64,000 bases of DNA from Mesorhizobium opportunistum WSM2075. GTDB lineage: Bacteria > Pseudomonadota > Alphaproteobacteria > Rhizobiales > Rhizobiaceae. The position numbers and the translations under genes are program-made. The stretch covers positions 5,894,001 to 5,958,000 of the forward strand of contig NC_015675.1 in the NCBI RefSeq assembly GCF_000176035.2, given 5' to 3'. Numbering within the stretch: position 1 is the first letter of the stretch; each line of letters opens with the position of its first letter. The notes beneath the pieces were generated by a model. That model did no database searches and had not been told where the DNA came from. It saw only the letters and a list, made by a program, of their open reading frames with translations. This document shows, piece by piece, positions 4,406 to 33,786 of this stretch.

Positions 4406-5263
4406 TCAGGAAGCGCTGTTCCCCGCGATCTCCAGCGCCTTCACGAAATGCAGCGAGCGCTGCAGGGCGCGACGAATGGTTTCGATATCGACCGGCCTGT
4501 TTCGGCGCTGGGGATCGCGGCGCTTCGGGCGCTCCAGGCGCAAGGGCAGTTCGATGCTGACCGGCAGCGTCGGGGGAAGCATCGCCCAGTATGGCTCGTA
4601 ATCGACCGAGCCGTCCCCGACGGCACAGAATGCCCATCCCGCACCGGTGCCGACGATGTCCTTCAAATGGGCATGGCCAACGGCTTCGAGAGCCGTCGCG
4701 ATATCTTCCGCCGGCTGCGTGGCCTCATCGCTGTAGGTGAAGACGTTTCCGGCGTCGTGGTTCAGGCGGACATGCCGCGATCCGATTTCGCGGACGAAGC
4801 TCGCCCCGGATCGGGCGTTGCCAAGCAAATCGTCCTTGCCGTGCCCGGGGTTCTCGAGCGCCAGGACGATACCGGCCTGTTCGAGCCTCGGCAGAACAGC
4901 ATCGATCGTCCGGCGGATACTCGCCCGGCCCGTCATCGGGCCGGCATTGGTGATCAGGAACGATGCGCCGAGACCGGCGGCAAAGGCGACGCGCCGCAAC
5001 AGCGCATCCACCGCATCAGGTCCCGATAGGTCGAGATGAGCCGAGACGGCATTGATGCCCAGCCTGGCACTGTCGGCTGTCTGGCGAAGCTTCGAGCCCT
5101 TGGTGTCGGTAAACATGCCTTCATCGAAATCGACATAGCCGCGAATGAAGGCCGGTTCGATATGGCTGGCGCCAGCAGCCGCGATCTCTTCGATGGCCAA
5201 TTCCATGGAATAGCCATCGAAGAGCGCGGTCGATACCGAGGTGATCCGTGGCGTCGGAGGCAG
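4406..5263 (-). CDS. oiaC: Xylose-isomerase-like TIM-barrel protein, probable 3-oxo-isoapionate decarboxylase (OiaC-like)
   Basis: AP-endonuclease-2/xylose-isomerase-like barrel. Metal or substrate residues are visible in HIEPAF, LALENPGHG, RLNHDAGN, AHLKD and SIELPLRLERP. OiaC enzymes of the D-apiose pathways decarboxylate 3-oxo-isoapionate to L-erythrulose and, as far as I recall, belong to this superfamily. The assignment rests on that and on the adjacent D-apionate oxidoisomerase paralogue. The first ATG (5206) would cut off the first barrel strand, encoded by ITSVSTALFDGYS upstream. The only usable start before it is a CTG at 5263, placed 8 bp behind AAGGGAG, so that start is used here. 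The frame is the same as that of the upstream gene, with a single TGA and one codon between them. Another sugar isomerase/epimerase function remains possible. Confidence 0.62.
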   Translation of the reverse strand: MPPTPRITSVSTALFDGYSMELAIEEIAAAGASHIEPAFIRGYVDFDEGMFTDTKGSKLRQTADSARLGINAVSAHLDLSGPDAVDALLRRVAFAAGLGASFLITNAGPMTGRASIRRTIDAVLPRLEQAGIVLALENPGHGKDDLLGNARSGASFVREIGSRHVRLNHDAGNVFTYSDEATQPAEDIATALEAVGHAHLKDIVGTGAGWAFCAVGDGSVDYEPYWAMLPPTLPVSIELPLRLERPKRRDPQRRNRPVDIETIRRALQRSLHFVKALEIAGNSAS

Positions 5264-5266
5264 CGC

Positions 5267-6112
5267 TCAGGCTCCCTTGCCGTAGACGATCAGCTCGGAG
5301 GCTTCCTTCACCTTGGCCGGAGACAAGGCCTCGCGCCAATCATCGCGGACCACGACACCCTTGGCGAAACGCATCAGGCGCAGCGCCGCATCGGACGGCA
5401 CCTTTGGAGAGAAGCCGAACCACATGGCGATCTCGACATTCAGGTGGCCAATCAGAAAGTCGAGCGCGGCCTTTCTGGGAATGCCATATTTGCGTTCGCA
5501 TTCCTCGACGGCCTCGACCATGGTGTCCACGAAGGGCATGGCGATCATTTCGGAAAGGCCTGGCTCGAGGATTGCCAGTTGCTCGACGGTGACGCGGTGG
5601 CTGTCGATGATCGGCGACCACATCGCCTTGCACACCTCTTCGCCAAGCGCATAGTGCTCCTCGGGGCCCTGCATCAGGGCGCAGACGATCGACTGCCTGG
5701 CAATGCCGCCGTGATAGTCGCGGCGGGCAGCCCATTCCGTCTCCTCGTTGAACAGGGGCGGATGACAGGGATGGCCGACAAAATAGGTCAGATCGGGCCG
5801 GTCCTTCGGCAGGTCGCCGGCGTAAGGCGCGGCGGCATCGAGAATGAGAAGCATCGCGCCGCTGGCGAGCATCGGCGATATCTGCCGTGCGACCTGGCCG
5901 ATGATATTGTCCGGCAGGGCCATGACCACGACCTTGGCGCCGGGGACGCCCTCTTCCATCGAGACGGCGCTGATGCCGGCCTCCGATAGCCGCTTGCGGC
6001 CGGCCTCGCCGACTTCCACGGCACGGACATCGTAGCCCGCTTCGATCAGCTTGCGCGCGACACGGAAGCCCATCTTGCCTCCCGCTCCAAGCAACGCCAC
6101 GGATATCGTCAT
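5267..6112 (-). CDS. NAD-binding phosphogluconate-dehydrogenase-C-like protein, D-apionate oxidoisomerase paralogue
   Basis: 281-residue dehydrogenase with an N-terminal Rossmann motif LLGAGGKMG and a C-terminal PGDH_C-type helical domain. It shares HPCHPP, FNEET, MQGPE, SHRVTVEQ and LEPGLSE with the ApnO gene at 12137-12964, so the two are clear paralogues. ApnO oxidises and isomerises D-apionate to 3-oxo-isoapionate. This copy could do the same or act on a related branched acid. The ATG at 6112 follows GGGAGAGAAG. The gene directly precedes the oiaC-like gene, which would act on its product, and follows its own GntR regulator. Its separate transcription unit suggests different induction from the main apiose operon. 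Confidence 0.75.
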   Translation of the reverse strand: MTISVALLGAGGKMGFRVARKLIEAGYDVRAVEVGEAGRKRLSEAGISAVSMEEGVPGAKVVVMALPDNIIGQVARQISPMLASGAMLLILDAAAPYAGDLPKDRPDLTYFVGHPCHPPLFNEETEWAARRDYHGGIARQSIVCALMQGPEEHYALGEEVCKAMWSPIIDSHRVTVEQLAILEPGLSEMIAMPFVDTMVEAVEECERKYGIPRKAALDFLIGHLNVEIAMWFGFSPKVPSDAALRLMRFAKGVVVRDDWREALSPAKVKEASELIVYGKGA

Positions 6113-6283
6113 TCGCTTCTCTCCCAATTGCCTTGTGCGCCTCTAGCACGCCGATTCAGCCGAACCCTGCGTAGCTTCGATCTCCGGATGTGCGGCGCCT
6201 GCCGCAGCCATCTTGCAGGCTGTGGAGATACGACCGGCCCATGCCGCGTCCGCGCTGGACGGACATCCATGGAGGCGAGCGTT

Positions 6284-6325
6284 AGCACCAAAAAGATATC
6301 ATGTCATCACATGAGCTTTGGTGCT
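6284..6325. promoter_or_regulatory. Inverted repeats in the gap before the apnO paralogue
   Basis: AGCACCAAA (6284-6292) and TTTGGTGCT (6317-6325) form 9-bp arms 24 bp apart. Between them lies a 16-bp palindrome TCATGTCATCACATGA (6299-6314). Its core GTCATCACAT nearly matches GTCATCATAT in front of the GntR gene (minus strand, 7158-7149). This is probably an operator and promoter region for the 6112-4406 genes. Confidence 0.5.
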
Positions 6326-6351
6326 CAAAAAATTTTGACCGATCCGGATAC

Positions 6352-7065
6352 TCAGCCAGTCCCGCCGCCGGTCAGTTTCGAATACAGCTCATTGGCGCGG
6401 CCGATATGCTCGGCCATGGCGACGCTCGCGCCTTCCGGATCCCCGCTGGCGATCGCCTTGTAGATGCGTTCGTGCTCCTCGACCGTCAGGCGTTCGGCAC
6501 CTTTCACCGCCACCAGGTCGCGCTTGAACCGCGACAGCCATTCGAGCATTCCCTTCGCCACCGCGGCTATCATGGAATTGCCGCTCATCTCGGCAATCAC
6601 GGCGTGGAATTCCATGTCGGCGGCGACAAATCGCGCCTGGTCGCCCTTCGCATCGCGCAGGTGGCGCAGGGTCTCGGCAAGTCGCTCCAGGTTCTTGGCC
6701 GTGGCGCGCCGCGTGGCTATCCGCACCAGGCCGGTTTCCAACAAGAGCCTGACTTCCTTGAGTTCTTCGAGACCACGAGAGTTCGTCGCCAGCATCATGA
6801 CCATCGCCGCGGAAACCTGATCGACGATCACCTCGGGCGTCGGATTGATGACGCGGGCACGTTCGCCGTGGGAAATCTTGATAAGGCCCATCTGCTGCAG
6901 CGTCAGCATGGCTTCGCGGATCGACGGGCGCCCGACGCCGATCATCGTCATCAATTCCTTTTCCGACGGCAATTGAGAGCCTGGCGGAAATTCGGATGTC
7001 GAGATCGCCGCCATCAGCCGGTCAAGCACCTCTACATACAACTTCTTCTTCTGGACCGGTTCCAT
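6352..7065 (-). CDS. GntR/FadR-type transcriptional regulator
   Basis: DNA-binding regulator of 238 residues. The N-terminal winged helix has the GntR motif PPGSQLPSEKEL and GRPSIREAM. The C-terminal FCD ligand-binding domain has the metal or ligand positions D/H/H around FVAADMEFHAVI and EEHERI. It is related to the second regulator at 20625-21338. The ATG at 7065 follows GGAGGG; an in-frame ATG at 7083 is also possible. The gene precedes the apnO paralogue and oiaC on the same strand, so it probably controls them and itself through the GTCATCAYAT motifs. The ligand is likely a sugar acid of this pathway. Confidence 0.85.
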   Translation of the reverse strand: MEPVQKKKLYVEVLDRLMAAISTSEFPPGSQLPSEKELMTMIGVGRPSIREAMLTLQQMGLIKISHGERARVINPTPEVIVDQVSAAMVMMLATNSRGLEELKEVRLLLETGLVRIATRRATAKNLERLAETLRHLRDAKGDQARFVAADMEFHAVIAEMSGNSMIAAVAKGMLEWLSRFKRDLVAVKGAERLTVEEHERIYKAIASGDPEGASVAMAEHIGRANELYSKLTGGGTG

Positions 7066-7148
7066 GCATCCCTCCGCGATCATTCCTCCGGCATATCGAT
7101 CCCGAGTCGCACCGGGAGGCAAGGCCCAGCGATCGATTGACATTACAT

Positions 7149-7158
7149 ATATGATGAC
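7149..7158 (-). promoter_or_regulatory. Candidate autoregulatory site of the first GntR gene
   Basis: GTCATCATAT on the minus strand lies about 85 bp before the GntR start. It matches GTCATCACAT at 6303-6312 in 9 of 10 positions. Two matches at the two ends of this regulator gene suggest its own operator. Confidence 0.4.
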
Positions 7159-7321: not shown

Positions 7322-7350
7322 GGTATGCTGGTATAACATGTAGATGGTAT
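7322..7350. promoter_or_regulatory. Three GGTAT repeats before the first sugar-binding protein gene
   Basis: GGTAT occurs at 7322, 7330 and 7346, that is with 8- and 16-bp steps. The middle one is part of CTGGTATAA (7328-7336), the reverse complement of the TNATACCAG core found before apnO, the second binding protein and the RuBisCO-like gene. NanR-type FadR regulators are known to bind tandem GGTATA repeats, so this is a likely GntR operator. Confidence 0.6.
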
Positions 7351-7432
7351 GGTGTCTCTCCGAGGGTGGGACGCCGTTACGGAATGGCATGCAAGCCGGC
7401 CATGCTGGCCGGTGTTTTTGGGAGGAAGTATC

Positions 7433-8455
7433 ATGAAGTTTGCAATCGTAGCGGCGCTTGCCAGCACCGCGCTGGGGAGCGTGTTCGCACTGCCGGCAAT
7501 GGCGTCTCCGGACGCCCCGGTGATCGCACTGACCAACGCCTATTACGGCAATACCTGGCGGCACCAGATGGTGGAGGCTTTCGAGGCCTCGGCCAAGGAA
7601 GCAAAGGCCGCTGGACAGATTTCCGACTACATCGTCATGAATGGCGACGGCTCAGTGGCGCAGCAGAACAGCCAGATCGCCGAACTGATCCTGAAGAAGG
7701 TCGACGTGCTTGCGGTCGATGCCGCCTCGGAAACCGCGGTCAACGGCATCATCGAGAAAGCCTGCAAGGCCGGCATCATCGTCGTGTCCTTCGATTCCGT
7801 CGCTTCGGCGCCCTGCAACTACCAGCTCAACTTCGATTTCAAGGGCTACAAGGCAACCCAGGCCGAGGCCGTCTTCAAGATGCTCGGCGGCAAGGGCAAC
7901 GTCATCCAGGTGCGCGGCGTCAAGGGCTCGGCTCCCGACAACGACATGTTCAACGCCCAGCAGTCGGTGCTGGCGAAATATCCCGACATCAAGGTCGTCG
8001 CCACTGTCTATGGTCAGGCAACCGCCTCGGTCGCGCAGGCGGCCATCGCCAATGTGCTGCCCTCGCTGCCGCATGTTGATGCAGTGCTCGGCCAAGGCGG
8101 CAGCGACGATGTCGGCATCGCCCAGGCCTTCGTCCAATATGGTGGCGACTATGCCGGCACGATGCCGATCATCGAAGGCGGCGGCGGCACCGATTTCGTC
8201 AAATGGTGGGCCGACGAGAATGCCAAGAACGGCTACCAGACGGTCTCGATGAACACCACGCCCGGCATTGGCGGCGCCGCGTTCTGGCTCGGACTGTCGC
8301 TGCTCAAAGGCGCCAAGGCACCCAAGATGATGATCATGCCGGTGGCGACGGTCGACGCCAGCAATCTCAAGGAGTATGCCAAGCTGCCGGGCGGCCAGAT
8401 CATCAGCCCCAGCTATTCGCTCGACTGGGTCAAGCAGAACCTCTTGAGCAAGTAA
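7433..8455 (+). CDS. Periplasmic sugar-binding protein of ribose-type ABC importer 1
   Basis: Periplasmic binding protein of the LacI/RbsB fold (Peripla_BP_4), 340 residues. The signal peptide runs to about residue 24 (cleavage near AMA-SP). The mature part has the usual two-lobe pattern, for example IAELILKKVDVLAVDAAS and VDAVLGQGGSDD. The ATG at 7433 follows GGAGG. It is the first gene of an importer operon with the ATPase-permease fusion and a second permease. D-apiose, D-apionate or a related branched sugar is the expected ligand from context; which one cannot be told from sequence. Confidence 0.85.
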   Translation: MKFAIVAALASTALGSVFALPAMASPDAPVIALTNAYYGNTWRHQMVEAFEASAKEAKAAGQISDYIVMNGDGSVAQQNSQIAELILKKVDVLAVDAASETAVNGIIEKACKAGIIVVSFDSVASAPCNYQLNFDFKGYKATQAEAVFKMLGGKGNVIQVRGVKGSAPDNDMFNAQQSVLAKYPDIKVVATVYGQATASVAQAAIANVLPSLPHVDAVLGQGGSDDVGIAQAFVQYGGDYAGTMPIIEGGGGTDFVKWWADENAKNGYQTVSMNTTPGIGGAAFWLGLSLLKGAKAPKMMIMPVATVDASNLKEYAKLPGGQIISPSYSLDWVKQNLLSK

Positions 8456-8468
8456 CGCGACCAGCACA

Positions 8469-8500
8469 ATGGATCGGGCGCCGAAGGTCGCCCGGTCCAT
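8469..8500 (+). other. Hairpin behind the binding-protein gene of importer 1
   Basis: ATGGATCGGGCG pairs with CGCCCGGTCCAT over 12 positions with one G-T pair and an 8-base loop. There is no T-run, so it is more likely an mRNA-stabilising or partial-attenuation hairpin that keeps binding-protein expression high than a full terminator. Confidence 0.55.
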
Positions 8501-8523
8501 GGCCGTGAAGAAACGGAGGACGA

Positions 8524-10994
<2,471 letters not shown>

Positions 10995-10998
<4 letters not shown>

Positions 10999-12026
10999 AC
11001 GCGCTGTCCGCCTTTACCTTCTGGGCGCAGAGGAATCGCTGGATCTGGGCGGCGATCGGGGTGTTGCTGCTCTGGCTGGTGCTCTCCGTGGTCACCAACC
11101 GGTTCAGCCTCTCCAGCCTGTCGGGCATCATTCTGTCGGCATCGTTCCTGACGGTCGTCGGCATCGGCCAGATGTTCGTCGTCACCACCGGGCGCGGCAA
11201 CATCGACCTTTCCGTCGCCTCGGTGATCACGCTCAGCGCCTTCGTCGCGCTGCTCACCATCAAAGGCCAGGATGCCAACCTTGCCATTGGGGTCGCCGCC
11301 GCCGTCCTGCTCGGCCTCGCGGTCGGGCTGCTCAATTCGCTGCTCGTCGTCGGCCTTGGCATTCCGGCCATCATCGCCACGCTGGCGACCGGCTATGTGT
11401 TGGCAACCGCGACGCTCTTGTCGAACAAGGCTATCCCCGGCTTTGCCGTCAGCCCAGCGCTGAAGAGCTTGGCGACAGGCCGCATCTCGGGTGTTCCGAT
11501 CATGGCCATCATCGCCATCCTGGGCGTGATGGCCGCCTCCTTCGTGCTGCGCTACACAGTGTTCGGGCAGGTCCTGTCGGCGGTCGGCCAGAATAGAACC
11601 GCTGCCCGGCTCGCTGCCATCAAGAACGACCGGGTGATCGCGGCGGCCTTCATCATCTCGTCGGTGCTGGCCTCGCTCGATGGACTGCTGCTCGGCGCCT
11701 ATATCGGCGGCGCTTTCCTCGAAATGGGCCAGCCCTATCTGCTGCAGTCGATCGCTGCTGTCGTGCTTGGTGGCACGCTGATCTTCGGCGGTTCGGCGAC
11801 CGCGCTCGGCACCCTGTTTGCCAGCATCCTGCTGATCCTGATCGTCACCACCATGCAGGTCATCGGGCTGCCTCCGGGCGCCCAGGATATCGTCCAGGGC
11901 ATCGTCGTCATCTTCGTGCTGGCGCTGGCTGGCCGACAAGCCCTGGCGCGGCGCGCTTCCGTCGATGTCACGGACGGGGCGGCTGCAAAGACAGCACCAG
12001 GCGCGGCCACACCTCAGCCGAAGTGA
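10995..12026 (+). CDS. Ribose-type sugar ABC transporter permease, importer 1
   Basis: Inner-membrane permease of 343 residues, BPD_transp_2 family, with about 9-10 hydrophobic segments and the motif RGNIDLSVAS near residue 70. It starts in the stop of the fusion gene (ATGA) after GGAG. It should pair with the C-terminal permease domain of the fusion. It has a short polar tail. It is followed 110 bp later by apnO, with a predicted operator between them. Confidence 0.88.
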
Positions 12027-12060
12027 CCAACAGCAACCAACGATTCCACTTGCCAAATTG

Positions 12061-12080
12061 TGGTAGAGTGATCATACCAG
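12061..12080 (+). promoter_or_regulatory. Apiose-regulon operator candidate before apnO
   Basis: TGGTAGAGTGATCATACCAG ends 56 bp before the apnO start. It differs from the site at 13167-13186 at only 3 of 20 positions. TGGTA and TACCA form inverted ends within it. Probably bound by the GntR protein encoded at 20625-21338. Confidence 0.65.
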
Positions 12081-12136
12081 TATGTGAGATGACGATCGCG
12101 CGACGGTCGCCTGTTTGATCAAGGAGCAAGGGCCAG

Positions 12137-12964
12137 ATGACAACGATTGCACTGTTCGGTGCGGGCGGGAAAATGGGCTACCGCCTGGCAACCAATTTTC
12201 GCGGCTCGGACTACAAGATCCGCCATGTCGAGATCAGCGAGGCCGGCAAGGAGCGCCTGAAGACCGGGCTTGGCATCGACACGGTCAGCGTCGACGAGGC
12301 GCTCAAGGGTGCCGAGGTCGTGATCCTGGCGGTGCCGGACACCCATATCGGCAAGGTCGCCACCGGCATCGAAAGCAAGCTTGCCCCAGGCACGATGGTG
12401 ATCGTGCTGGATGCGGCAGCCCCCTTCGCCGGGCATCTGCCTGATCGTGCCGATCTTACCTATTTCGTCACCCATCCCTGCCATCCGCCGATCTTCAACG
12501 ACGAGACCGACATGGCCGCCAAGAAGGACTTCTTCGGCGGCGTCAAGGCCAAGCAGCATTTCGTCAGCGCCCTGATGCAAGGGCCGGAGGACGACTACGC
12601 CAAGGGCGAGAAGATCGCCCAGATCATCTGGGCGCCGGTGATGCGCTCGCACCGCGTGACGGTCGAACAGATGGCGCTGCTGGAACCCGGCCTTTCGGAG
12701 ACGGTGTGCGCCTCGCTGCTCGTCGTCATGAAGGAAGCCCTCGACGAGGTCGTGGCGCGCGGCGTCGACCGGCAGGCGGCGCTCGATTTCCTGCTCGGCC
12801 ACATGAATGTGCTCGGCGCCGTCATCTTCGGCGAGACCAAGGGCGTGTTCTCCGATGCCTGCAACAAGGCGATCGAGTTCGGCAAGCCGGTGCTGATGCG
12901 CGACGACTGGAAGCGGGTCTTCGAACCGCAGGAAATCGCCGCCAGCATCCAGCGCATTACTTGA
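12137..12964 (+). CDS. apnO: D-apionate oxidoisomerase
   Basis: NAD-dependent enzyme that converts D-apionate to 3-oxo-isoapionate in the known D-apiose pathways. It is 275 residues long: Rossmann domain with LFGAGGKMG (6-14), acidic residue E34 at the end of strand 2 as expected for NAD, then a PGDH_C-like domain with THPCHPP, MQGPEDD, SHRVTVEQ and LEPGLSE. The assignment rests on this family plus the presence of apsD, apnL, oiaK and a RuBisCO-like gene within 10 kb. The start follows AAGGAGCAAGGG. It probably forms its own transcript with the operator at 12061-12080. Confidence 0.8.
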   Translation: MTTIALFGAGGKMGYRLATNFRGSDYKIRHVEISEAGKERLKTGLGIDTVSVDEALKGAEVVILAVPDTHIGKVATGIESKLAPGTMVIVLDAAAPFAGHLPDRADLTYFVTHPCHPPIFNDETDMAAKKDFFGGVKAKQHFVSALMQGPEDDYAKGEKIAQIIWAPVMRSHRVTVEQMALLEPGLSETVCASLLVVMKEALDEVVARGVDRQAALDFLLGHMNVLGAVIFGETKGVFSDACNKAIEFGKPVLMRDDWKRVFEPQEIAASIQRIT

Positions 12965-13166: not shown

Positions 13167-13186
13167 TGGTTGACTCATCATACCAG
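13167..13186 (+). promoter_or_regulatory. Apiose-regulon operator candidate before importer 2
   Basis: TGGTTGACTCATCATACCAG is a near copy of the site before apnO (17 of 20 positions). It lies 220 bp before the binding-protein start, so the transcript would have a leader of well over 100 bases. Confidence 0.65.
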
Positions 13187-13196: not shown

Positions 13197-14348
<1,152 letters not shown>

Positions 14349-14397: not shown

Positions 14398-14425
14398 CTT
14401 CATTTCACTGGGATGCTTGACCGCG

Positions 14426-15088: not shown

Positions 15089-16686
15089 GCACGGCGGCCG
15101 GTCACGACGTCATTTTGAAGCTGGCAGACGTCTCGAAGGTCTATGCCGGAACCGTCGCGGTCAAGCAGGCCAATTTCGAGGTGCGCAAGGGCGCGGTCAA
15201 TGTTCTGGTCGGCGAAAACGGCGCCGGCAAATCGACGCTGATGAAGATCATTGCCGGCGTCGAGCAGCCGACGGCTGGACGCATCCTGCTCGACGGCAAC
15301 GAAGTCTCGTTCTCGTCCTCCGGTGACGCGGTGAACCGCGGCATCGGCATGGTGTTCCAGGAACTGAATCTGTTCGGCAACATGACCGTCGCCGAGAACA
15401 TTTTCGCCACCCGGGAGATCACCAACCGGTTTCGCAAGATCGACCGCAAGGAGCAGGAAAGGCGCGCGGGCACATTCCTCGAGCGGCTCGAGGCCGGGAT
15501 ACGGCCGGATATGCTGGTCGAGGATCTGCGCATCGGCCAGCAGCAGCTTGTCGAGATCGCCAAGGCAGTTTCGCTCGACGCGCGCATCCTGATCATGGAC
15601 GAGCCGACCTCGGCGCTGAGCGCCGCCGAAGTCGAGATCCTGTTCAAGGTGATCGCCGACCTCAAGTCGCGCGGCGTGGCGATCGTCTATATCTCGCACC
15701 GGCTGGAGGAACTGATCCGCATCGGCGATTACATCACCGTGCTGCGCGACGGCCGCATCACCGGCCAGGAGGAGATGAGAAACGTCGACACACAGTGGAT
15801 CGTGCGGCAGATGATCGGCTCGGACGCCAAGGATTTCGCCAAGGCCGACGACCATGCACCGGGCGAGGAAATCTTCCGCGCCGAGGACATCTGCCTGCCG
15901 CGCGCCACCGGCGGGCTGGCGGTCGACCACGTCTCGCTGTCGCTGCGCGCCGGCGAGATCCTCGGCATCTACGGGCTGATGGGCGCCGGGCGCAGCGAGT
16001 TGTTCGACTGCATCATGGGCCGCCACGGCCATGCCAGCGGCAACATCTTCATCGACGGAAAACAGGTCCGGGAACGCGATACGACGCGCCGCATCCGGCG
16101 GGGTCTGGCGCTGATCCCGGAGGACCGGCAGCGCGAGGGCCTGGTGTCGATCCTCTCCGTCGCCAGCAATTTGACGCTGGCAAGCCTGTCGCGCTTCGTC
16201 AGCCTGTTCCACATCCGCGGCGCCGCCGAACGGCAGGCCGTGGTGCAGATGGTGCGGGAACTCGCGATCAAGGTCGCCGATCCGGCGCAGGAGGTCTCGT
16301 CGCTGTCCGGCGGCAACCAGCAGAAAGTGGTGATCGGCAAGGCGCTGCTCACCGGACCCAAGGTGCTTCTGATGGATGAGCCCAGCCGCGGCATCGATGT
16401 CGGCGCCAAGGCCGACGTCTTTCGCACCATGCGCAAACTGTCGCGCGATGGGCTCGGCATCCTCTTCGCCACGTCAGACCTCGACGAGGTGATGGCGCTC
16501 TCCGACCGGATCGCGGTGATGAGCAATGGCAAGCTGACCGGCATGTTCGAGCGCGCCGAGGCGACCGAAGCCGCGATCGTCGCCGCATCGGCGCTCGGCC
16601 ATGGACCTGTCCCCGCACATCCTGCCCCCGCAGATCTTGCCCCCATACATCTTGCCCCGCACATGGAGAGCAACGTCGATGACTGA
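15085..16686 (+). CDS. Ribose-type sugar ABC transporter ATP-binding protein, importer 2
   Basis: RbsA-like ATPase of 533 residues with two domains: NBD1 with VGENGAGKST, LRIGQQQLVEIAKA, ILIMDEPTSALS and YISHRL; NBD2 with the degenerate GLMGAGRSEL, LSGGNQQKVVIGKAL and LLMDEPSRGID. The last 30 residues are an unusual His/Pro/Ala-rich tail (PAHPAPADLAPIHLAP), coded by a short imperfect DNA repeat (16617-16664) and likely disordered. It overlaps DUF2291 (ATGA) and the following permease gene, which shows tight co-translation. Confidence 0.9.
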   Translation: MSTAAGHDVILKLADVSKVYAGTVAVKQANFEVRKGAVNVLVGENGAGKSTLMKIIAGVEQPTAGRILLDGNEVSFSSSGDAVNRGIGMVFQELNLFGNMTVAENIFATREITNRFRKIDRKEQERRAGTFLERLEAGIRPDMLVEDLRIGQQQLVEIAKAVSLDARILIMDEPTSALSAAEVEILFKVIADLKSRGVAIVYISHRLEELIRIGDYITVLRDGRITGQEEMRNVDTQWIVRQMIGSDAKDFAKADDHAPGEEIFRAEDICLPRATGGLAVDHVSLSLRAGEILGIYGLMGAGRSELFDCIMGRHGHASGNIFIDGKQVRERDTTRRIRRGLALIPEDRQREGLVSILSVASNLTLASLSRFVSLFHIRGAAERQAVVQMVRELAIKVADPAQEVSSLSGGNQQKVVIGKALLTGPKVLLMDEPSRGIDVGAKADVFRTMRKLSRDGLGILFATSDLDEVMALSDRIAVMSNGKLTGMFERAEATEAAIVAASALGHGPVPAHPAPADLAPIHLAPHMESNVDD

Positions 16687-21452: not shown

Positions 21453-21472
21453 TTATGTACTCATTATACCAG
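21453..21472 (+). promoter_or_regulatory. Apiose-regulon operator candidate between gntR and the RuBisCO-like gene
   Basis: TTATGTACTCATTATACCAG matches 14 of 20 positions of TGGTWGASTSATCATACCAG, all clustered in the right part (ACTCATNATACCAG). It ends 52 bp before the RuBisCO-like start and could also autoregulate the divergent gntR. Confidence 0.6.
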
Positions 21473-21524: not shown

Positions 21525-22775
21525 ATGATCACCCTCACCTATCGCATCGAAACCTCAGGCAGCATAGAAGCCCTGGCGGCCAAGATCGCCAGCGACCAGT
21601 CGACCGGCACCTTCGTTGCGCTGCCCGGCGAGACCGAAGAGCTGAAGGCGCGCGTGGCGGCACGGGTGCTGGCGATCCGGCACCTGCCCGATGCGGAGCA
21701 GCCGTCCATTCCCGAGGCCGGAACCGGGCCTTTCAGGCGCGCCGATGTCGATATCGCCTTTCCGTTCGATGCCATCGGCACCGACCTCTCGGCGCTGATG
21801 ACCATCGCGATCGGTGGCACCTATTCGATCAAGGGCCTGTCGGGCATCCGCGTCGTTGACATGAAGCTGCCGCAAGAATTCAGGGGCGCCCATCCGGGGC
21901 CGCAATTCGGCGTTGCCGGCAGCCGCAGGCTGACCGGTGTCGAGGGCCGTCCGATCATCGGCACCATCGTCAAGCCGGCGCTGGGCCTGCGACCGCACGA
22001 GACGGCCGCCATGGTCGGCGAACTGATCGCGGCCGGCGTCGATTTCATCAAGGACGATGAGAAGCTGATGAGCCCGGCCTACTCGCCACTGGCGGAGCGG
22101 GTGAAGGCGATCATGCCGCTGATCCTCGATCACGAGCAGAAGACCGGCAAGAAGGTGATGTATGCCTTCGGCATCTCGCATGCCGACCCGGACGAGGTGA
22201 TGCGCAACCACGATATGGTGCTCAAGGCCGGCGGCAATTGCGCGGTCATCAACATCAACTCAATCGGCTTCGGCGGCATGGCTTACCTCAGAAAGCGTTC
22301 CGGCCTGGTGCTGCATGCCCACCGCAACGGCTGGGACATCCTGACCCGCCATCCCGGCCTCGGCATGGACTTCAAGGTCTGGCAGCAGTTCTGGCGGCTG
22401 CTCGGCGTCGACCAGTTCCAGATCAACGGCATCGCCTCGAAATACTGGGAGCCGGACGCATCTTTCATTGCCTCCTTCGAGGCGGTGACGACGCCGCTGT
22501 TCTCACCTGATGATTGCGCTCTGCCGGTCGCCGGTTCGGGCCAATGGGGCGGACAGGCGCCCGAGACCTACGAGCGCACCGGGCGCACGGTCGATCTGCT
22601 CTATCTCTGCGGCGGCGGCATCGTCAGCCATCCGGACGGCCCGGGTGCCGGCGTGCGCGCCGTCCAGCAGGCCTGGCAGGCCGCCGTCGAGGGTATTTCC
22701 TTGGCGGACTACGCAAGCAGCCATGTCGAACTGGCGCGCTCGATCGAGAAGTTCGGCGACGGCAAGGCCGCGTGA
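21525..22775 (+). CDS. RuBisCO-like protein of the 3-oxo-isoapionate-4-phosphate branch (OiaX or OiaT type)
   Basis: 416-residue form IV RuBisCO homologue. Conserved active-site residues are K150 (KPALGL), carbamylation lysine K176 with D178 and E179 in FIKDDEK, and histidines in HAHR (264, 266). GSGQWGGQ (337-344) and GGGIVSHPDGPGAG (363-376) mark the phosphate sites. In apiose pathways such proteins act on 3-oxo-isoapionate-4-phosphate: OiaX decarboxylates it to L-erythrulose-1-phosphate, OiaT splits it to 3-phosphoglycerate and glycolate. Downstream tetrulose-phosphate isomerases in this window favour OiaX; the sequence alone does not decide. It overlaps oiaK by 4 bp. No small subunit or phosphoribulokinase is present. 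Confidence 0.85.
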   Translation: MITLTYRIETSGSIEALAAKIASDQSTGTFVALPGETEELKARVAARVLAIRHLPDAEQPSIPEAGTGPFRRADVDIAFPFDAIGTDLSALMTIAIGGTYSIKGLSGIRVVDMKLPQEFRGAHPGPQFGVAGSRRLTGVEGRPIIGTIVKPALGLRPHETAAMVGELIAAGVDFIKDDEKLMSPAYSPLAERVKAIMPLILDHEQKTGKKVMYAFGISHADPDEVMRNHDMVLKAGGNCAVININSIGFGGMAYLRKRSGLVLHAHRNGWDILTRHPGLGMDFKVWQQFWRLLGVDQFQINGIASKYWEPDASFIASFEAVTTPLFSPDDCALPVAGSGQWGGQAPETYERTGRTVDLLYLCGGGIVSHPDGPGAGVRAVQQAWQAAVEGISLADYASSHVELARSIEKFGDGKAA

Positions 22776-24106
22776 GCGAGGCCATGCAGAAGCTGCTGCT
22801 CAGTTACTATGGCGACGATCTCACCGGCTCGACCGACGTCATGGAGGCACTCGAACTCGGCGGCGTGCCGACGGTGCTGTTCATGCGCCAGCCCGACCAG
22901 CCCTTGCTGGAGCGATTTTCGCATTGCCGCGCCATGGGACTGGCGGGCACGAGCCGCAGCGAAACGCCGCAATGGATGGACGAAAACCTGGTGCCGGCCT
23001 TCGAGTGGCTAAGGGGGCTCAAGGCGGCGGTTTGCCACTACAAGATCTGCTCGACCTTCGATTCCAGCCCGACGATCGGCAGCATCGGCCGCGCCATAGA
23101 AATCGGCAGGGGTGTCTTCGGCCAGAAGGCCGTGCCGGTGGTTGTCGGGGCGCCTCAGCTCAAGCGCTATACAGCGTTCGGGAACCTCTTCGCTGCATTC
23201 CGCGGCGACTATTTCCGCATCGACCGGCACCCCGTCATGAGCCGGCATCCGGTGACGCCGATGAACGAGGCCGATCTGCTCCTCCATCTGTCTCGCCAGA
23301 CCGGTCTCGCTTCCGGCCTTGTCGACCTGGCGGCATTGCAGGCCGACGATCTTCCACAACGGGTCGACCAGGCCTTACAAAACAGGGCAATCGTCCTGTT
23401 CGACGTCGAGAGCCGCCAGACGCAGAAGCGCGTCGGCGAACAGGTCTGGCGCATGTGCGAACAAGGCCATGGTTTCGTCGTCGGATCCTCGGGCGTCGAA
23501 TATGCCCTGCTTGCCGAATGGGCAGACAAAGGCATCGCCACAGGGCATGCGCCCTTTACGCCACCCGGTCCGGTCGACAGGCTCGCCGTGGTCTCGGGCA
23601 GTGTGTCGCCGACCACCGAGAAGCAGATCCGCTTTGCGCTTGCGCACGGATTTGACGGCATTCAGATGGACGCCATGCAGTTGGTCTCGGAGGGCGCCGG
23701 CGAGGCGATCGAGCGTGCCGTCGCCAGCGGATTGTCGAGCCTGGCGGCGGGGCGCAGCGTGATCCTCTACACCGCGCTCGGTCCCCAGGCCGATCGCAGT
23801 GCCGAGATCGACCATATCGAAGGCGCACGCAACAGGCTGGGACGGGCGCTGGGAACCATCCTGCGCCGGCTGGTGGCGACAGAGAAACTCAAGCGCGCGG
23901 TGATCGCCGGCGGCGACACGTCGAGCCACGCGCTGGGACAGTTGTCCATCGATGCGCTGACCGTGCGCATGCCGTTGCCGCAATCGCCCGGCTCGCCGCT
24001 TTGTCTCGCCCATGGCGGCGGCGAGATCGACGGGCTCGAAATCGCGCTGAAGGGCGGCCAGGTCGGCACCGACGCCTATTTCGAGACGATCCGGCTGGGA
24101 AGCTAG
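22772..24106 (+). CDS. oiaK: 3-oxo-isoapionate kinase (DUF1537 / four-carbon acid sugar kinase family)
   Basis: ATP-dependent kinase of 444 residues, expected to make 3-oxo-isoapionate-4-phosphate for the RuBisCO-like protein. The N-terminal acid-sugar-binding domain starts with YYGDDLTGSTDVMEAL. The C-terminal nucleotide-binding domain has VVSGSVSPTT and the glycine motif IAGGDTSSHAL. The GTG at 22772 overlaps the upstream stop (GTGA); an ATG four codons later is the alternative. Its position directly behind the RuBisCO-like gene is the arrangement known for OiaK. It ends 18 bp before the convergent methyltransferase gene. Confidence 0.82.
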   Translation: MSEAMQKLLLSYYGDDLTGSTDVMEALELGGVPTVLFMRQPDQPLLERFSHCRAMGLAGTSRSETPQWMDENLVPAFEWLRGLKAAVCHYKICSTFDSSPTIGSIGRAIEIGRGVFGQKAVPVVVGAPQLKRYTAFGNLFAAFRGDYFRIDRHPVMSRHPVTPMNEADLLLHLSRQTGLASGLVDLAALQADDLPQRVDQALQNRAIVLFDVESRQTQKRVGEQVWRMCEQGHGFVVGSSGVEYALLAEWADKGIATGHAPFTPPGPVDRLAVVSGSVSPTTEKQIRFALAHGFDGIQMDAMQLVSEGAGEAIERAVASGLSSLAAGRSVILYTALGPQADRSAEIDHIEGARNRLGRALGTILRRLVATEKLKRAVIAGGDTSSHALGQLSIDALTVRMPLPQSPGSPLCLAHGGGEIDGLEIALKGGQVGTDAYFETIRLGS

Positions 24107-26933: not shown

Positions 26934-27626
<693 letters not shown>

Positions 27627-27664: not shown

Positions 27665-27700
27665 TAGTATTTGCGAAATGCCGAATTCGGGAGGATGCCG

Positions 27701-28708
27701 GTGCAGACCAAGAAGATCATCAATGACGGCAACCGCGCCGTCGACGAGATGCTCGAAGGGATCCTCGCCGCGCATCCTCGCCATCTCAGGAGCGCGGATG
27801 GCAGCCCGCGCTCGATCGTCGCCCGCGACGGGCCGCGGCCAGGCAAGGTCGGGCTGGTGATCGGCGGCGGCTCGGGCCACGAGCCGACCTTTCTCGGCTT
27901 TGTCGGCAAGGGACTGGCGGACGCGGCGGCCATCGGCAATGTCTTTGCCTCGCCACCACCCGATCCGATCCTGGAATGCGCCAAGGCGGTGAGCGGCGGC
28001 GCCGGCGTCCTGTTCATGTACGGCAACTATGCCGGCGACGTGATGAACTTCGACATGGCGGCCGAGATGGCCGGCATGGACGACATTGAGGTGCGCACCG
28101 TGCTGACCACCGACGACGTCGCTTCGGCACCGCGCGATCAGCGGGACAAGCGCCGCGGCGTCGCCGGCAATCTCTTCATCTTCAAGGCAGCCGGCGCCGC
28201 ATGCGACCGGATGCTCTCCTTCGACGAATGCGAGCGCATCGCGCGCAAGGCCAACGACCACACCTTCACCATGGGCGTGGCGCTGTCGCCCTGCTCGCTG
28301 CCGCAGACAAGGCGGCCGAATTTCGAGATCGGCGCCGACGAAATGGAGATCGGCATGGGCATCCATGGCGAACCAGGCATTGGGCGCGGCAAGCTCGGGA
28401 CCGCCGACGAGATCACCGACGATATGCTTGACAGGATCCTCGCCGAGATGTCGCCTTCGCGTGGCGACAAGGTCGCGGTGCTGGTCAATTCGCTCGGCTC
28501 GACGCCGCTGATGGAACTCTACATCATGAACCGCCGGGTCAAGCAAAGGCTCGACGGCATCGGTGTTTCCGTTCATGCCACCTGGGTCGGCAACTACTGC
28601 ACGTCGCTGGAAATGGCCGGCGCATCTGTGACCTTGATGCATCTCGACGGCGAACTGCAGACGATGCTCGACCACCCTTGCGACTGCGCCATGTTCCGCG
28701 CCGGCTGA
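27701..28708 (+). CDS. DhaK-type ketose kinase subunit, probable L-erythrulose/dihydroxyacetone kinase
   Basis: 335-residue DhaK-fold subunit, which binds short ketoses covalently through a histidine. GGGSGHEP (55-62), NYAGDVMNF and the catalytic H222 in MGIHGEPG are present. With the DhaL-like gene behind it, it forms a split kinase. L-erythrulose kinase (LerK) of tetrose pathways belongs to this family, and the neighbours tpiB and rpiB are the next two enzymes, so L-erythrulose is favoured; dihydroxyacetone is the alternative. The GTG at 27701 sits 6 bp behind GGGAGG; ATG 27695 and TTG 27671 are other in-frame starts. Confidence 0.82.
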   Translation: MQTKKIINDGNRAVDEMLEGILAAHPRHLRSADGSPRSIVARDGPRPGKVGLVIGGGSGHEPTFLGFVGKGLADAAAIGNVFASPPPDPILECAKAVSGGAGVLFMYGNYAGDVMNFDMAAEMAGMDDIEVRTVLTTDDVASAPRDQRDKRRGVAGNLFIFKAAGAACDRMLSFDECERIARKANDHTFTMGVALSPCSLPQTRRPNFEIGADEMEIGMGIHGEPGIGRGKLGTADEITDDMLDRILAEMSPSRGDKVAVLVNSLGSTPLMELYIMNRRVKQRLDGIGVSVHATWVGNYCTSLEMAGASVTLMHLDGELQTMLDHPCDCAMFRAG

Positions 28709-28722
28709 CGAAGGAGCGATCC

Positions 28723-29358
28723 GTGACCATCGATGCCGCCGACCTGAAAAGAATGTTCGATGAAATCGCCGTGGCGATCGAGGCCGACAAGGACCGGCTC
28801 TGCCGGCTCGACGGTGTCATCGGCGACGCCGACCATGGCATCGCCATGGCGCTCGGTTTCGGCGCCGTGCGCGATGCGCTGGCATCGCTCGACCTCGCGG
28901 CTGTCGAGCCGACCGCGCTGCTCAACGGCGCGGCGAAGTCGTTCCTCAATGCGGTTGGCGCCTCGTCAGGCCCGCTCTATGCGACGGCCTTCATGCGTGC
29001 GGCTGCCGCCGTCAAGGGCAAGGCGACGCTGGCGGACGCCGAATTCATCGCCCTGTTCCAGGCCATGGCGCAGGGCATCAAGGATCGCGGCAAGGCCGAA
29101 CCTGGCGAAAAGACGATGATCGATGCCTGGCAGCCGGCGGCCGAAGCGGCCGCGGCCGCGCATGCTGCCGGCAAGATGCTGTCCGAAAGTCTGGCCGCCG
29201 CGCTTGCCGCCGCCGAGTCTGGTGCTGAAGCGACCAAGGACATGGTCGCGGCCAAGGGCCGCTCGGCCCGGCTCGGTGAGCGCTCGCTCGGCCACATGGA
29301 TCCGGGTGCGGCGTCCGCCGTCACCGTCATCGCTGCGATGACGAAGGCTTTGGCTTAA
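28723..29358 (+). CDS. DhaL-type nucleotide-binding kinase subunit
   Basis: 211-residue partner of the DhaK-type subunit; DhaL domains carry the adenine nucleotide and Mg. Metal-binding aspartates are in [10 protein letters not shown] (30-39). [21 protein letters not shown] and [14 protein letters not shown] follow the family pattern. The GTG at 28723 follows AAGGAG. No DhaM-type PTS protein is nearby, so direct use of ATP is likely. Its TAA overlaps the stop of the convergent rpiB by 4 bp. Confidence 0.83.
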
Positions 29359-29795
29359 GCCTTTGCCGTATCGAGCCTGTTGATCGCCTGGACATTGCCG
29401 GCCGACGGCCCCTTCTCGTCGAACTCGGAAGCCAGCCACGTGTCGACGATCGCCTTGGCCAGTTCCGGGCCGATGACGCGGGCGCCCATGGTGATGATCT
29501 GCGCGTTGTTGGATTTGGCGGCGCGTTCGGCCGAATAGGTGTCGTGGGTGAGCGCGGCGCGGATGCCCGGCACCTTGTTGGCCGAAATCGAAACGCCGAT
29601 GCCTGTGCCGCAGAACAGGATGCCGCGATCGTTGTCGCCGTCGACGATCGTCTGGGCGAGCTTTTGCGACAGGTCGGCGTAGTAGCCGGCCTGGCTGAGA
29701 TCGCTGACGGTGAGACCGGGCTTGGTCGCCAGATGTGCGGCGATGACATCGAGCAGCGGCTTGCCGGCGCTGTCGGCCCCAATGGCTATTTTCAT
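29355..29795 (-). CDS. rpiB: RpiB-type sugar-phosphate isomerase, probable D-erythrulose-4-phosphate isomerase
   Basis: 146-residue member of the RpiB/LacAB family. The catalytic cysteine is in [14 protein letters not shown] (C62), and [16 protein letters not shown] is the conserved second block. In erythritol loci this protein (EryI/DerI/RpiB) converts D-erythrulose-4-phosphate to D-erythrose-4-phosphate. It is the last gene of the minus-strand trio eryR-tpiB-rpiB, 34 bp behind tpiB. The ATG at 29795 follows AAAGGA. A true ribose-5-phosphate isomerase role is possible but less likely here. Confidence 0.85.
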
Positions 29796-29829
29796 GATCG
29801 TGTCCTTTCTTGACTGGATGCGTTTGATT

Positions 29830-31420: not shown

Positions 31421-31684
31421 CGCAGCCGACCGCCGAACGGCGCTCCTTGATCGAGCCCAAGAGATAACAGGTATCGTCGCAAAAGTATCATGATTTTTGT
31501 TATAATGAGATATTTTCTTGGGATATACCCATGGCTTTCAACACCGTGCTGTAACAAGAATTGCAGCGGGGACCATCTCTGGCGGTTGCGGTCGCGCCGA
31601 AATCCGGCCAGAAGCATCGATGGGCTGAACGATGCGCGGACAGTCCGCAACCACAGGTTCGAAACAGATACGGGAGACTAATCG
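31421..31684. promoter_or_regulatory. Divergent eryR / aldolase control region
   Basis: A 264-bp gap without a gene. Positions 31480-31540 are strikingly AT-rich for this GC-rich genome and include TATAAT (31501-31506) in plus orientation. No clear -35 box or palindrome could be fixed. Likely promoters for both genes and an EryR site. Confidence 0.5.
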
Positions 31685-32749
31685 TTGGCTCGCATCACAC
31701 TGAGACAATTGCTCGATCACGCCGCCGAATATGGCTATGGCGTGCCGGCCTTCAACATGAACAACATGGAACAGGGCCTCGCCATCATGGAGGCGGCGGA
31801 AGAGACCAAATCGCCTGTCATCCTTCAGGCAAGCCGCGGTGCACGCGCCTATGCCAATGACGTGGTGCTGGCCAAGCTGATCGATGCGCTGGTCGAAATC
31901 CATCCCGACATCCCGGTCTGCATGCATCTTGACCATGGCAACAACGAAGCCACCTGCGTCACCGCGATCCAGTACGGCTTCACCTCGGTGATGATGGACG
32001 GTTCGCTGAAGGAAGACGGCAAGTCGCCGGCCGACTACGCCTATAATTCCGGCATCACCAAGCGCGTCGTCGACATGGCCCATTGGGGCGGCGTTTCCGT
32101 CGAAGGCGAGATCGGCGTGCTCGGCTCGCTCGAGAGCGGCGGCGGCGAGCAGGAAGACGGCCACGGCGTCGAAGGCGCCATCAGCCACGACCAGTTGTTG
32201 ACCGATCCGGAACAGGCAGTGGAATTCGTCAAGGACACCCATGTTGACGCTCTGGCTGTGGCCATGGGCACCAGCCACGGGGCCTATAAATTCTCGCGCA
32301 AGCCCGATGGCGCGGTGCTGGCGATGAACGTCATCGAGGAGATCCACCGCCGCCTGCCGAACATGCATCTGGTCATGCACGGCTCGTCCTCGGTGCCGGA
32401 GGACCTGCAGGAGATCATCAACAAGTATGGCGGCCAGATGAAGCCGACCTGGGGCGTGCCGGTGGAAGAGATCCAGCGCGGCATCAAGCACGGCGTGCGC
32501 AAGATCAACATCGACACCGACAACCGCATGGCGTTGACAGGCGCCATCCGCAAGGTGCTGACCGAGAACCCGAGCGAGTTCGATCCGCGCAAATATTTGA
32601 CGCCGGCGATGGCTGCCATGCGCAAGCTTTGCAAGGAGCGCTTCGAGCAGTTCGGCACCGCCGGCAACGCACCGAAAATCAAGCCGCTGCCGGTCTCGGA
32701 AATGGCCAAGCGCTACAAGTCGGGCAGCCTCGATCCGAAATTCGGCTGA
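31685..32749 (+). CDS. fba: Class II fructose-bisphosphate aldolase (CbbA/Calvin subtype)
   Basis: 354-residue zinc aldolase. Zn ligands and neighbours are in [24 protein letters not shown] and [21 protein letters not shown] binds the phosphate. Length and motifs fit the Calvin-type class II subfamily. The start is a TTG behind GGGAGACTAATCG. Next to the tetrose-phosphate genes it may condense D-erythrose-4-phosphate with DHAP to sedoheptulose bisphosphate as well as cleave fructose bisphosphate; this is inference. It has its own terminator. Confidence 0.87.
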
Positions 32750-32777
32750 CGACTATCCGACCGGGACGATCCGGTTC

Positions 32778-32811
32778 AACGGGCGGGCGCCTATCGGCTC
32801 CCGCCCGTTTT
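32778..32811 (+). terminator. Rho-independent terminator of the aldolase gene
   Basis: AACGGGCGGG (32778-32787) and CCCGCCCGTT (32800-32809) form a 10-bp stem with a 12-base loop, followed by TTC. The T-run is TTTT (32808-32811). It lies between convergent genes and may also stop the long minus-strand ery transcript. Confidence 0.75.
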
Positions 32812-33786
32812 CTATCCGGCCTTCGGCACGAGGCCAGACCTGCCTGTCTCGATGAAGGGCGCCCAGTAGTCGACCGATTCCCGGATCATGGCGACAACCT
32901 GATGATCGACCGGTTCGCGTTCACGGAACGACAGTTCCAGGCAAATCTCATTGTCCGTGCCGCCGCCGCGCCGCACCGTCTCCAGCAGCTTTTCCGGCGT
33001 GATGCGACCGTCCTTGTTGTAAGCCGCCGTGAATGGCCAGTGACCGCCCTTGTTCATCGACGACTGCTTGATGTGGATGATCGGTGACTTCCTGGGAAAG
33101 GCTTCGGCCCAGGCATAGGGATCGATGTCGGCCGGATTGCTGGAGGTGACGTCGCCATGGTCGATATCGACCATCATCTCCAGCGGAATGGCCATGCCGG
33201 CGGCGTCGATCGCGCTTTGCAACTGCCGGCAGTTCTCGATGGTGTGGCCGAATTCGCGGCCGACCGACATCGGCTCCCAGAACAAATAGCTCAGCCCGGC
33301 GGCGCGGGCGTGTTCGGCGACCTCGCGCCAGCACTCCAGTGCTATGTCGAACAGCCGCGCGCGGCGCTCCGGGTCGTCGAAGTCGCGATGGGTGAAGATG
33401 GCGAATTGCGTGCCCATGCCGCTGGCGCCAAGATCGGCGGAAATGTCGGCGAAGGTCTTGAACCAGTCGACATAGTAGCGGCGCACATCCGCGTCGGGAT
33501 GGCCGAAATGGTTGAGCCGGCCGTAAGGGCCGGTCATGCCCGAGGTGACGCGCACGCCGGTGCGGGAGAGCGCGTTGCGAAACAGCCGGACGAATTTGAC
33601 AATCGTCGCCGCCGGCCAGCCCGGATTGACGAATTCATGCGTGAGCTGAATGTCCCTGATGCCGATGTCATAGGCTATCGTGTCGATCAGGTCGTCCGGT
33701 TCGGCGAAGCGGTTGACCAGCGGATTGGTGTTGAGAGAGAGCGTGAAGGCCACAGCCGCGATCCTCTCAGCGCTGTCGCGTGACAT
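32812..33786 (-). CDS. eryC: EryC-type TIM-barrel tetrulose-phosphate racemase/isomerase
   Basis: 324-residue xylose-isomerase-like barrel. Metal-type residues are visible in FWEPMS, MMVDIDHGD, IHIKQSS and CLELSFRE. It is the last gene of the eryD...eryC operon and corresponds in position and family to EryC, which interconverts tetrulose phosphates after EryB in erythritol breakdown. The stop overlaps the end of the aldolase terminator region. The assignment depends on its place next to EryA- and EryB-like genes. Confidence 0.75.
   Translation of the reverse strand: MSRDSAERIAAVAFTLSLNTNPLVNRFAEPDDLIDTIAYDIGIRDIQLTHEFVNPGWPAATIVKFVRLFRNALSRTGVRVTSGMTGPYGRLNHFGHPDADVRRYYVDWFKTFADISADLGASGMGTQFAIFTHRDFDDPERRARLFDIALECWREVAEHARAAGLSYLFWEPMSVGREFGHTIENCRQLQSAIDAAGMAIPLEMMVDIDHGDVTSSNPADIDPYAWAEAFPRKSPIIHIKQSSMNKGGHWPFTAAYNKDGRITPEKLLETVRRGGGTDNEICLELSFREREPVDHQVVAMIRESVDYWAPFIETGRSGLVPKAG

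What the first reader, a model, noticed from the sequence alone, without database searches (positions are those of the whole stretch)
4406..33786. Apiose catabolism and tetritol catabolism appear joined into one network with two exits
One 40-kb stretch carries apsD, apnL, two apnO-type genes, an oiaC-like gene, a RuBisCO-like gene with oiaK, a split DhaK/DhaL kinase, tpiB, rpiB and the eryABC genes. From known pathways, OiaC gives L-erythrulose (needing a kinase of the DhaK/DhaL family), OiaX gives L-erythrulose-1-phosphate directly, and erythritol breakdown also ends in tetrulose phosphates. All would use the same TpiB and RpiB to reach D-erythrose-4-phosphate. Encoding both apionate exits beside an erythritol locus is, as far as I know, not described as a unit.
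Basis: partly seen in the sequence, partly recalled or inferred. Interest (0 to 1): 0.8.

Follow-up and report, generated by a model that had tools for sequence, protein, structure and literature searches.

The report
Apiose and erythritol genes share enzymes
This soil bacterium keeps the genes for eating the plant sugar apiose next to those for eating erythritol, and both pathways appear to meet at one shared pair of enzymes; the enzymes are known, while I found no description of the joined arrangement, which recurs in related bacteria.

Summary
The gene list is right. The window (6.88-Mb genome; homologs are Mesorhizobium) holds a D-apiose-to-OiaX pathway, DhaKL, RpiB, TpiB, EryR, an aldolase and EryC-EryB-EryA. 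The joined-network idea is well supported. In 146 congeners, 83 of 86 genomes with OiaX also have EryC; the two lie within 40 kb in 48 of the 59 that have both on one contig. TpiB is in 96 of 101 genomes with either pathway (one copy in 95) and in 1 of 45 with neither; it lies between oiaX and eryC in 43 of those 48. Three congeners without eryC carry oiaX-oiaK-tpiB-rpiB-dhaK-dhaL on one strand, so TpiB/RpiB probably also serve apionate breakdown. Eight other genera show linkage. The two-exit claim is weaker. The OiaC-like gene is in 11 of 146 genomes; most close relatives sit with ApnO and often a second RuBisCO-like protein, which the window lacks, and rarely with DhaKL. DhaK accompanies OiaX with or without it. 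The operator-like motif of the apiose promoters has no site within one mismatch at dhaKL or tpiB. All enzyme steps are inferred by homology.

The parts
4406..5206 (-). OiaC-like PF01261 protein; homologous N-terminus extends to about 5257 without an ATG
   Evidence: AlphaFold model pLDDT 94.9; dN/dS 0.19-0.26 against three congeners
5267..6112 (-). ApnO-type oxidoisomerase 1 (3c24-like)
6352..7143 (-). GntR/NanR-type regulator 1 (start uncertain)
7349..12026 (+). sugar ABC transporter A (SBP-A, ATPase frame with a long C-terminal extension, permease), co-directional with apnO2
12137..12964 (+). ApnO-type oxidoisomerase 2 (5t57-like)
13173..13186 (+). operator-like site ACTCATCATACCAG upstream of sbpB
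13203..14348 (+). SBP-B, 89% identical to R. etli RHE_PF00037 (4ry0); mature part from about 13482
15100..17743 (+). ABC transporter B ATPase and permease (starts approximate)
17746..18780 (+). ApsD, D-apiose dehydrogenase (by family and position)
   Evidence: position between permease and apnL as in R. johnstonii
18786..20615 (+). ApnL, D-apionate lactonase
   Evidence: NF049900 962 bits
20625..21338 (-). GntR/NanR-type regulator 2
21459..21472 (+). operator-like site ACTCATTATACCAG upstream of oiaX
21528..22775 (+). OiaX, RuBisCO-like 3-oxo-isoapionate-4-phosphate decarboxylase
   Evidence: NF042437 780 bits; FIKDDE stretch shared with 3nwr in the alignment
22790..24106 (+). OiaK, DUF1537-type kinase (start approximate)
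27114..27626 (+). ribH2 lumazine synthase, neighbour of dhaK in some relatives
27671..28708 (+). DhaK subunit, probable erythrulose kinase
28678..29358 (+). DhaL subunit
29355..29801 (-). [quoted passage not shown]
   Evidence: NF051858 251 bits
29830..30588 (-). TpiB/EryH/LerI-type, probable L-erythrulose-1-phosphate isomerase; the only copy at E 1e-75 in the genome
30650..31420 (-). EryR, DeoR-type regulator (by family and position)
31685..32749 (+). class II fructose-bisphosphate aldolase
   Evidence: (Geddes 2013 notes it in Mesorhizobium)
32812..33786 (-). EryC, D-erythrulose-1-phosphate 3-epimerase
   Evidence: 4k3z 504 bits
33802..35436 (-). EryB (start uncertain)
35366..36406 (-). 2-hydroxyacid dehydrogenase between eryB and eryA
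36417..37973 (-). EryA, FGGY-type kinase
37970..44805 (-). ABC transporter and EryD-like regulator

Best explanation
The stretch is a fused locus in which two feeder pathways meet at L-erythrulose-1-phosphate (L-Eu1P) and share one downstream pair of isomerases. Feeder 1, D-apiose: import, ApsD, ApnL, ApnO, OiaK, then OiaX (RuBisCO-like) gives L-Eu1P. Feeder 2, erythritol: EryA, EryB, EryC give L-Eu1P. DhaKL gives a third entry for free erythrulose. TpiB then makes D-erythrulose-4-P and RpiB makes D-erythrose-4-P. Shown here: the genes, their families, their co-occurrence and linkage, and tpiB-rpiB inside apiose gene runs of relatives in which eryC was not found. Inferred from known families: every enzyme activity, the direction of flux, and the role of DhaKL. 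The OiaC-like/ApnO1 pair is an accessory branch whose reaction is unsettled.
For: Genus survey, n = 146: OiaX (89% identity or more) in 86, EryC in 98, both in 83. Of those 83, 59 have both on one contig, 48 of them within 40 kb. TpiB: 78 of 83 genomes with both, 3 of 3 with OiaX only, 15 of 15 with EryC only, 1 of 45 with neither; one copy in 96 of the 97 TpiB genomes; between oiaX and eryC in 43 of 48 near-linked genomes. G111, G112 and G046, without an eryC hit, carry oiaX-oiaK-tpiB-rpiB-dhaK-dhaL on one strand. G174, of another genus and without an eryC hit, has oiaX-oiaK-tpiB-rpiB-apnO-sbpB-atpB-permB-apsD-apnL on one strand. In G067 dhaKL and tpiB-rpiB stay with oiaX while eryC is 460 kb away. 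Family survey, 386 genomes outside the genus: both in 71, OiaX only in 13, EryC only in 27, neither in 275; TpiB in 69 of 71, 12 of 13, 27 of 27 and 11 of 275; within 40 kb in 14 of the 33 genomes with both on one contig, in 8 genera. The chain D-Eu1P -EryC-> L-Eu1P -LerI-> D-Eu4P -DerI-> E4P was seen in passages of PMC10733421.
Against: No expression, growth or enzyme data. The operator-like motif of the apiose promoters has only two sites in the genome within one mismatch, none at dhaKL or tpiB/eryR; a two-mismatch look-alike between eryR and fba (31497) is at chance level. In 11 of the 59 same-contig congeners oiaX and eryC are more than 40 kb apart, as in 19 of 33 outside the genus, and in R. 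johnstonii 3841 apnL and eryC are about 200 kb apart on one plasmid, so fusion is not required. Five OiaX genomes showed no TpiB at the cut-off (G069, G070, G090, G124, G127), and 11 of 275 genomes outside the genus have TpiB with neither pathway. Co-occurrence was not corrected for shared ancestry.
Confidence: 0.78

Rival explanations
1. One reading: the OiaC-like protein is a working 3-oxo-isoapionate decarboxylase. It gives free L-erythrulose that DhaKL phosphorylates, so the locus encodes two apionate exits that both end in L-Eu1P.
For: The gene is under purifying selection (dN/dS 0.19-0.26 against three congeners), keeps E135, D168, H197 and E236, invariant in 28 rows, in a well-predicted TIM barrel. 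An ApnO gene directly precedes it in the window and lies within 300 bp, on either strand, in 23 of the 28 close-clade loci beyond the 7 nearest. Distant relatives (23-36%) sit near dhaK in 30, tpiB in 28 and rpiB in 30 of 43 loci. R. tropici, at 43% identity and so within the range of the close clade, has OiaC-like-dhaK-dhaL in a row; the 12 other plasmids at 40-44% identity were not opened.
Against: In those 28 close-clade loci dhaK is near in 1 and tpiB or rpiB in 0, while a second RuBisCO-like protein is near in 17. DhaK presence does not depend on the OiaC-like gene (73 of 75 without it, 10 of 11 with it). No NCBIfam model or solved structure names the protein OiaC. That OiaC is a PF01261 protein is recalled, not looked up.
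Confidence: 0.4
2. The OiaC-like and ApnO1 proteins belong to a different branch together with the second RuBisCO-like protein (RLP2), perhaps the transcarboxylase/hydrolase type or an isomerisation of a related branched acid. The window has lost RLP2 and the pair now does something else or feeds OiaK/OiaX.
For: RLP2 lies about 950 bp from the OiaC-like gene in 7 of the 11 congeners that have that gene and was mapped between gntR1 and apnO1 in G111, G103 and G109. The window, G007 and G112 have only 204-269 bp there, no relic was found in the window, and G090 gave no RLP2 hit but its contig is broken near. RLP2 scores 428-452 bits against the OiaX model, cut-off 700 (three proteins), so it is not OiaX by that model. 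RLP2 (17), apsD (19), oiaK (11) and apnL (9) are neighbours in the 28 close-clade loci. The fold is closest to ketose 3-epimerases and isomerases.
Against: The pair stays under selection without RLP2 in the window. RLP2 is not seen near in 11 of those 28 loci. RLP2's own reaction is unknown.
Confidence: 0.4
3. Simple neighbourhood: the two loci sit side by side by chance of insertion, and TpiB/RpiB serve erythritol only.
For: Of 83 congeners with both pathways, 11 have them more than 40 kb apart; 24 more have them on different contigs, which in draft assemblies says little.
Against: tpiB-rpiB inside apiose gene runs of genomes without an eryC hit. Close linkage in 8 other genera. OiaX-only genomes keep TpiB in 3 of 3 and 12 of 13.
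Confidence: 0.06

Closest known systems
D-apiose OiaX pathway (Carter et al. 2018, recalled; paper not held); R. johnstonii pRL12 cluster annotated with OiaX
   Same: SBP, apnO-type gene, oiaX, oiaK, the apsD- and apnL-type genes, and dhaK-dhaL at the end of the run.
   Different: There eryC lies about 200 kb away on the plasmid; here the two loci abut and share dhaKL-rpiB-tpiB.
Mesorhizobium erythritol locus with eryR-tpiB-rpiB (Geddes 2013, PMC3599248, passages only)
   Same: Same ery genes, and the fructose-bisphosphate aldolase beside eryR-tpiB-rpiB.
   Different: The passages I saw do not mention apiose genes or dhaKL; I did not see its figure.
Tetritol pathway with LerK, LerI, DerI (passages of PMC10733421; Mycobacterium as the source is recalled)
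   Same: Erythrulose kinase, L-Eu1P isomerase and D-Eu4P isomerase as a module.
   Different: There fed by tetritol dehydrogenases; here also by a RuBisCO-like decarboxylase.
Rhodobacteraceae strain LCG007 apiose cluster (PMC11747546, one passage)
   Same: Genes for D-apionolactonase, apiose dehydrogenase, ApnO, OiaK and OiaX activities; growth on D-apiose reported there.
   Different: No ery link in that passage.

Membership tests
OiaX (NF042437) | score above curated cut-off of 700 bits | tested here: met
   780 bits
OiaX (NF042437) | decarboxylates 3-oxo-isoapionate-4-P to L-Eu1P | not testable with these tools
   needs an enzyme assay
ApnL (NF049900) | score above curated cut-off of 750 bits | tested here: met
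   962 bits
Rhizobial D-erythrulose-4-phosphate isomerase (NF051858) | score above curated cut-off of 240 bits | tested here: met
   251 bits
EryC | strong full-length match to the solved EryC-type chain 4k3z | tested here: met
   504 bits over residues 10-318; deposited as D-erythrulose 4-phosphate dehydrogenase, Brucella origin recalled
Glycerone kinase DhaK1 (TIGR02363) | score above equivalog cut-off of 406 bits | tested here: not met
   386 bits; consistent with a related substrate, not proof
OiaC (3-oxo-isoapionate decarboxylase) | PF01261 protein beside apiose genes | tested here: met
   (that OiaC is PF01261 is recalled)
OiaC (3-oxo-isoapionate decarboxylase) | sequence match to a characterised OiaC | tested here: inconclusive
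   no named OiaC among the 120 homologs listed of 170, in NCBIfam or PDB
OiaC (3-oxo-isoapionate decarboxylase) | relatives linked to an erythrulose kinase | tested here: inconclusive
   dhaK near in 1 of 28 close-clade loci beyond the 7 nearest and in 30 of 43 distant loci; R. tropici at 43% has it
L-erythrulose-1-P isomerase (EryH/LerI) | TIM-type protein in eryR-tpiB-rpiB context | tested here: met
   the models hit are triose-phosphate isomerase models, none specific to this activity

The most novel reading that the evidence does not exclude
DhaKL is a repair branch of the RuBisCO-like pathway. Free 3-oxo-isoapionate is a beta-keto acid that should lose CO2 by itself and give both D- and L-erythrulose. 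DhaKL would phosphorylate both, EryC would turn D-Eu1P into L-Eu1P, and TpiB/RpiB would recover the carbon. This would explain why dhaKL sits with oiaX in genomes where no OiaC-like gene was found, and why fusing the apiose locus to eryC pays off. The chemistry is reasoned from structure; nothing here tests it.
Probability: 0.22. Interest if true: 0.68.

Novelty: new variant of a known kind. Interest (0 to 1): 0.47.

Why it matters
It ties the breakdown of a plant cell-wall sugar to that of erythritol through one shared enzyme pair and shows how a RuBisCO-like protein is wired into central metabolism. It predicts that tpiB and rpiB mutants, usually read as erythritol mutants, also fail on apiose. 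It also points to an unassigned pair, ApnO1 with the OiaC-like protein, and to a second RuBisCO-like family in apiose clusters.
Full report
What is there. The window lies in a single-contig 6.88-Mb genome at 5894001-5958000. Close homologs of one of its proteins come from Mesorhizobium. From left to right these are: an OiaC-like PF01261 protein and an ApnO-type protein (minus strand), a NanR-type regulator, a sugar ABC transporter with a second ApnO-type gene, a second sugar ABC transporter with ApsD and ApnL, a second NanR-type regulator, OiaX and OiaK, then a methyltransferase, an MFS transporter and RibH2, then DhaK and DhaL, RpiB and TpiB (minus), EryR, a class II aldolase, EryC, EryB, a 2-hydroxyacid dehydrogenase, EryA, an ABC transporter and an EryD-like regulator. 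The SBP of transporter B is 89% identical to R. etli RHE_PF00037 (4ry0). That a later structure of that protein (5ibq, matched) holds D-apiose is recalled, not shown by any search.

Do the two parts travel together? In 146 genomes of the genus, a close OiaX (89% identity or more) is in 86 and EryC in 98. Both are in 83, OiaX alone in 3, EryC alone in 15 and neither in 45. Fisher p is about 5e-21, not corrected for ancestry. Of the 83, 24 have the two genes on different contigs, 48 within 40 kb and 11 further apart. Outside the genus (386 genomes of the 394 searched in the family) the numbers are both 71, OiaX only 13, EryC only 27, neither 275, with 14 of 33 same-contig cases within 40 kb, spread over 8 genera. 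In G091 the apiose cluster sits inside the ery locus, between tpiB-rpiB-dhaL-dhaK and eryC. In R. johnstonii 3841 apnL and eryC are on one plasmid but about 200 kb apart. So fusion is frequent and found in several genera, but not obligatory.

Is the shared step real? TpiB of the ery type is present once in 96 of the 97 genomes of the genus that have it (twice in G047). It is in 78 of 83 with both pathways, 3 of 3 with OiaX only, 15 of 15 with EryC only and 1 of 45 with neither. Of 48 near-linked genomes, tpiB lies between oiaX and eryC in 43. Outside the genus TpiB is in 69 of 71, 12 of 13, 27 of 27 and 11 of 275. Most telling are genomes without an eryC hit: G111, G112 and G046 carry oiaX-oiaK-tpiB-rpiB-dhaK-dhaL on one strand (9-141 bp between matched stretches in G111 and G112), and G174 carries oiaX-oiaK-tpiB-rpiB followed by apnO-sbpB-atpB-permB-apsD-apnL. 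G067 keeps dhaKL and tpiB-rpiB-eryR beside oiaX, with eryC about 460 kb away. This fits the known chemistry: OiaX yields L-erythrulose-1-phosphate (recalled; the NCBIfam model names the enzyme a 3-oxo-isoapionate-4-phosphate decarboxylase), and EryC, LerI and DerI convert D-erythrulose-1-P through L-erythrulose-1-P and D-erythrulose-4-P to erythrose-4-P (passages of PMC10733421). The apiose feeder therefore needs TpiB and RpiB but not EryC.

DhaKL does not depend on the OiaC-like gene: DhaK is in 73 of 75 OiaX genomes without it and 10 of 11 with it, and R. johnstonii has dhaKL at the end of its OiaX run. It also accompanies EryC without OiaX (14 of 15). It is best seen as an erythrulose kinase of the shared module (inference). 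Whether it serves outside erythrulose, a spontaneous by-product of the apionate pathway, or OiaC is open.

Regulation. A 14-base motif, ACTCATYATACCAG, is upstream of sbpB and of oiaX, is exact at both places in 7 of the 8 relatives mapped (the eighth lacks the cluster), and has no other site in the window's genome within one mismatch. It is probably the site of the second NanR-type regulator (inference). None lies at dhaKL or at tpiB/eryR at that stringency; a two-mismatch look-alike between eryR and fba is at chance level. In the window the shared module is therefore more likely controlled by EryR, perhaps through the common intermediate (inference).

Novelty. The enzymes and both pathways are known. 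The joined locus with a single shared tpiB-rpiB was not found in the searches, but the key 2018 paper could not be read. I rate it a new variant of a known kind.

Noticed in passing
window 5207-5269 (minus strand): The OiaC-like frame continues 17 or more residues upstream of its first ATG, right after the apnO1 TGA and in the same frame, with ACG where L057 and L058 have ATG and a CTG a little further upstream; L056, L059, L060 and L061 also lack that ATG. The first barrel strand of the model lies in this part, so a non-ATG start by coupling is likely.
   Followed up: partly
L034:14689-15930, L031:16676-17926: A second RuBisCO-like family (RLP2), about 45% to OiaX, sits near the OiaC-like gene in 17 of 28 further close-clade loci; relatives at 52-59% occur on plasmids of Azospirillum, Paraburkholderia and haloarchaea among others.
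   Followed up: partly
window 7349-12964: Transporter A runs into apnO2 on the same strand; G091 keeps this run without the OiaC-like pair. It may import apionate rather than apiose.
   Followed up: no
window 35366-36406: A 2-hydroxyacid dehydrogenase gene between eryA and eryB is conserved in G103, G007, G109 and G091 (89-96%); no role in erythritol breakdown is known to me.
   Followed up: no
window 42108-42250: Three copies of a 25-base inverted repeat spaced 59 bases apart, with two copies of a 30-base inverted repeat between them, in the gap between the ery solute-binding protein gene and the next permease gene.
   Followed up: no
window 27114-27626: ribH2 (lumazine synthase 2) sits directly before dhaK here and in G103, G007, G109 and G067, also where eryC is far away (G067); it is not beside dhaK in G053, G091, G111, G112 or G046.
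   Followed up: no
window 31685-32749: Class II fructose-bisphosphate aldolase between eryR and eryC; it might act on erythrulose-1-phosphate or further down.
   Followed up: no
window 14417-15088: Plus-strand frame of 223 aa between SBP-B and its ATPase, at the place of a DUF2291 gene in R. johnstonii; no NCBIfam hit.
   Followed up: no
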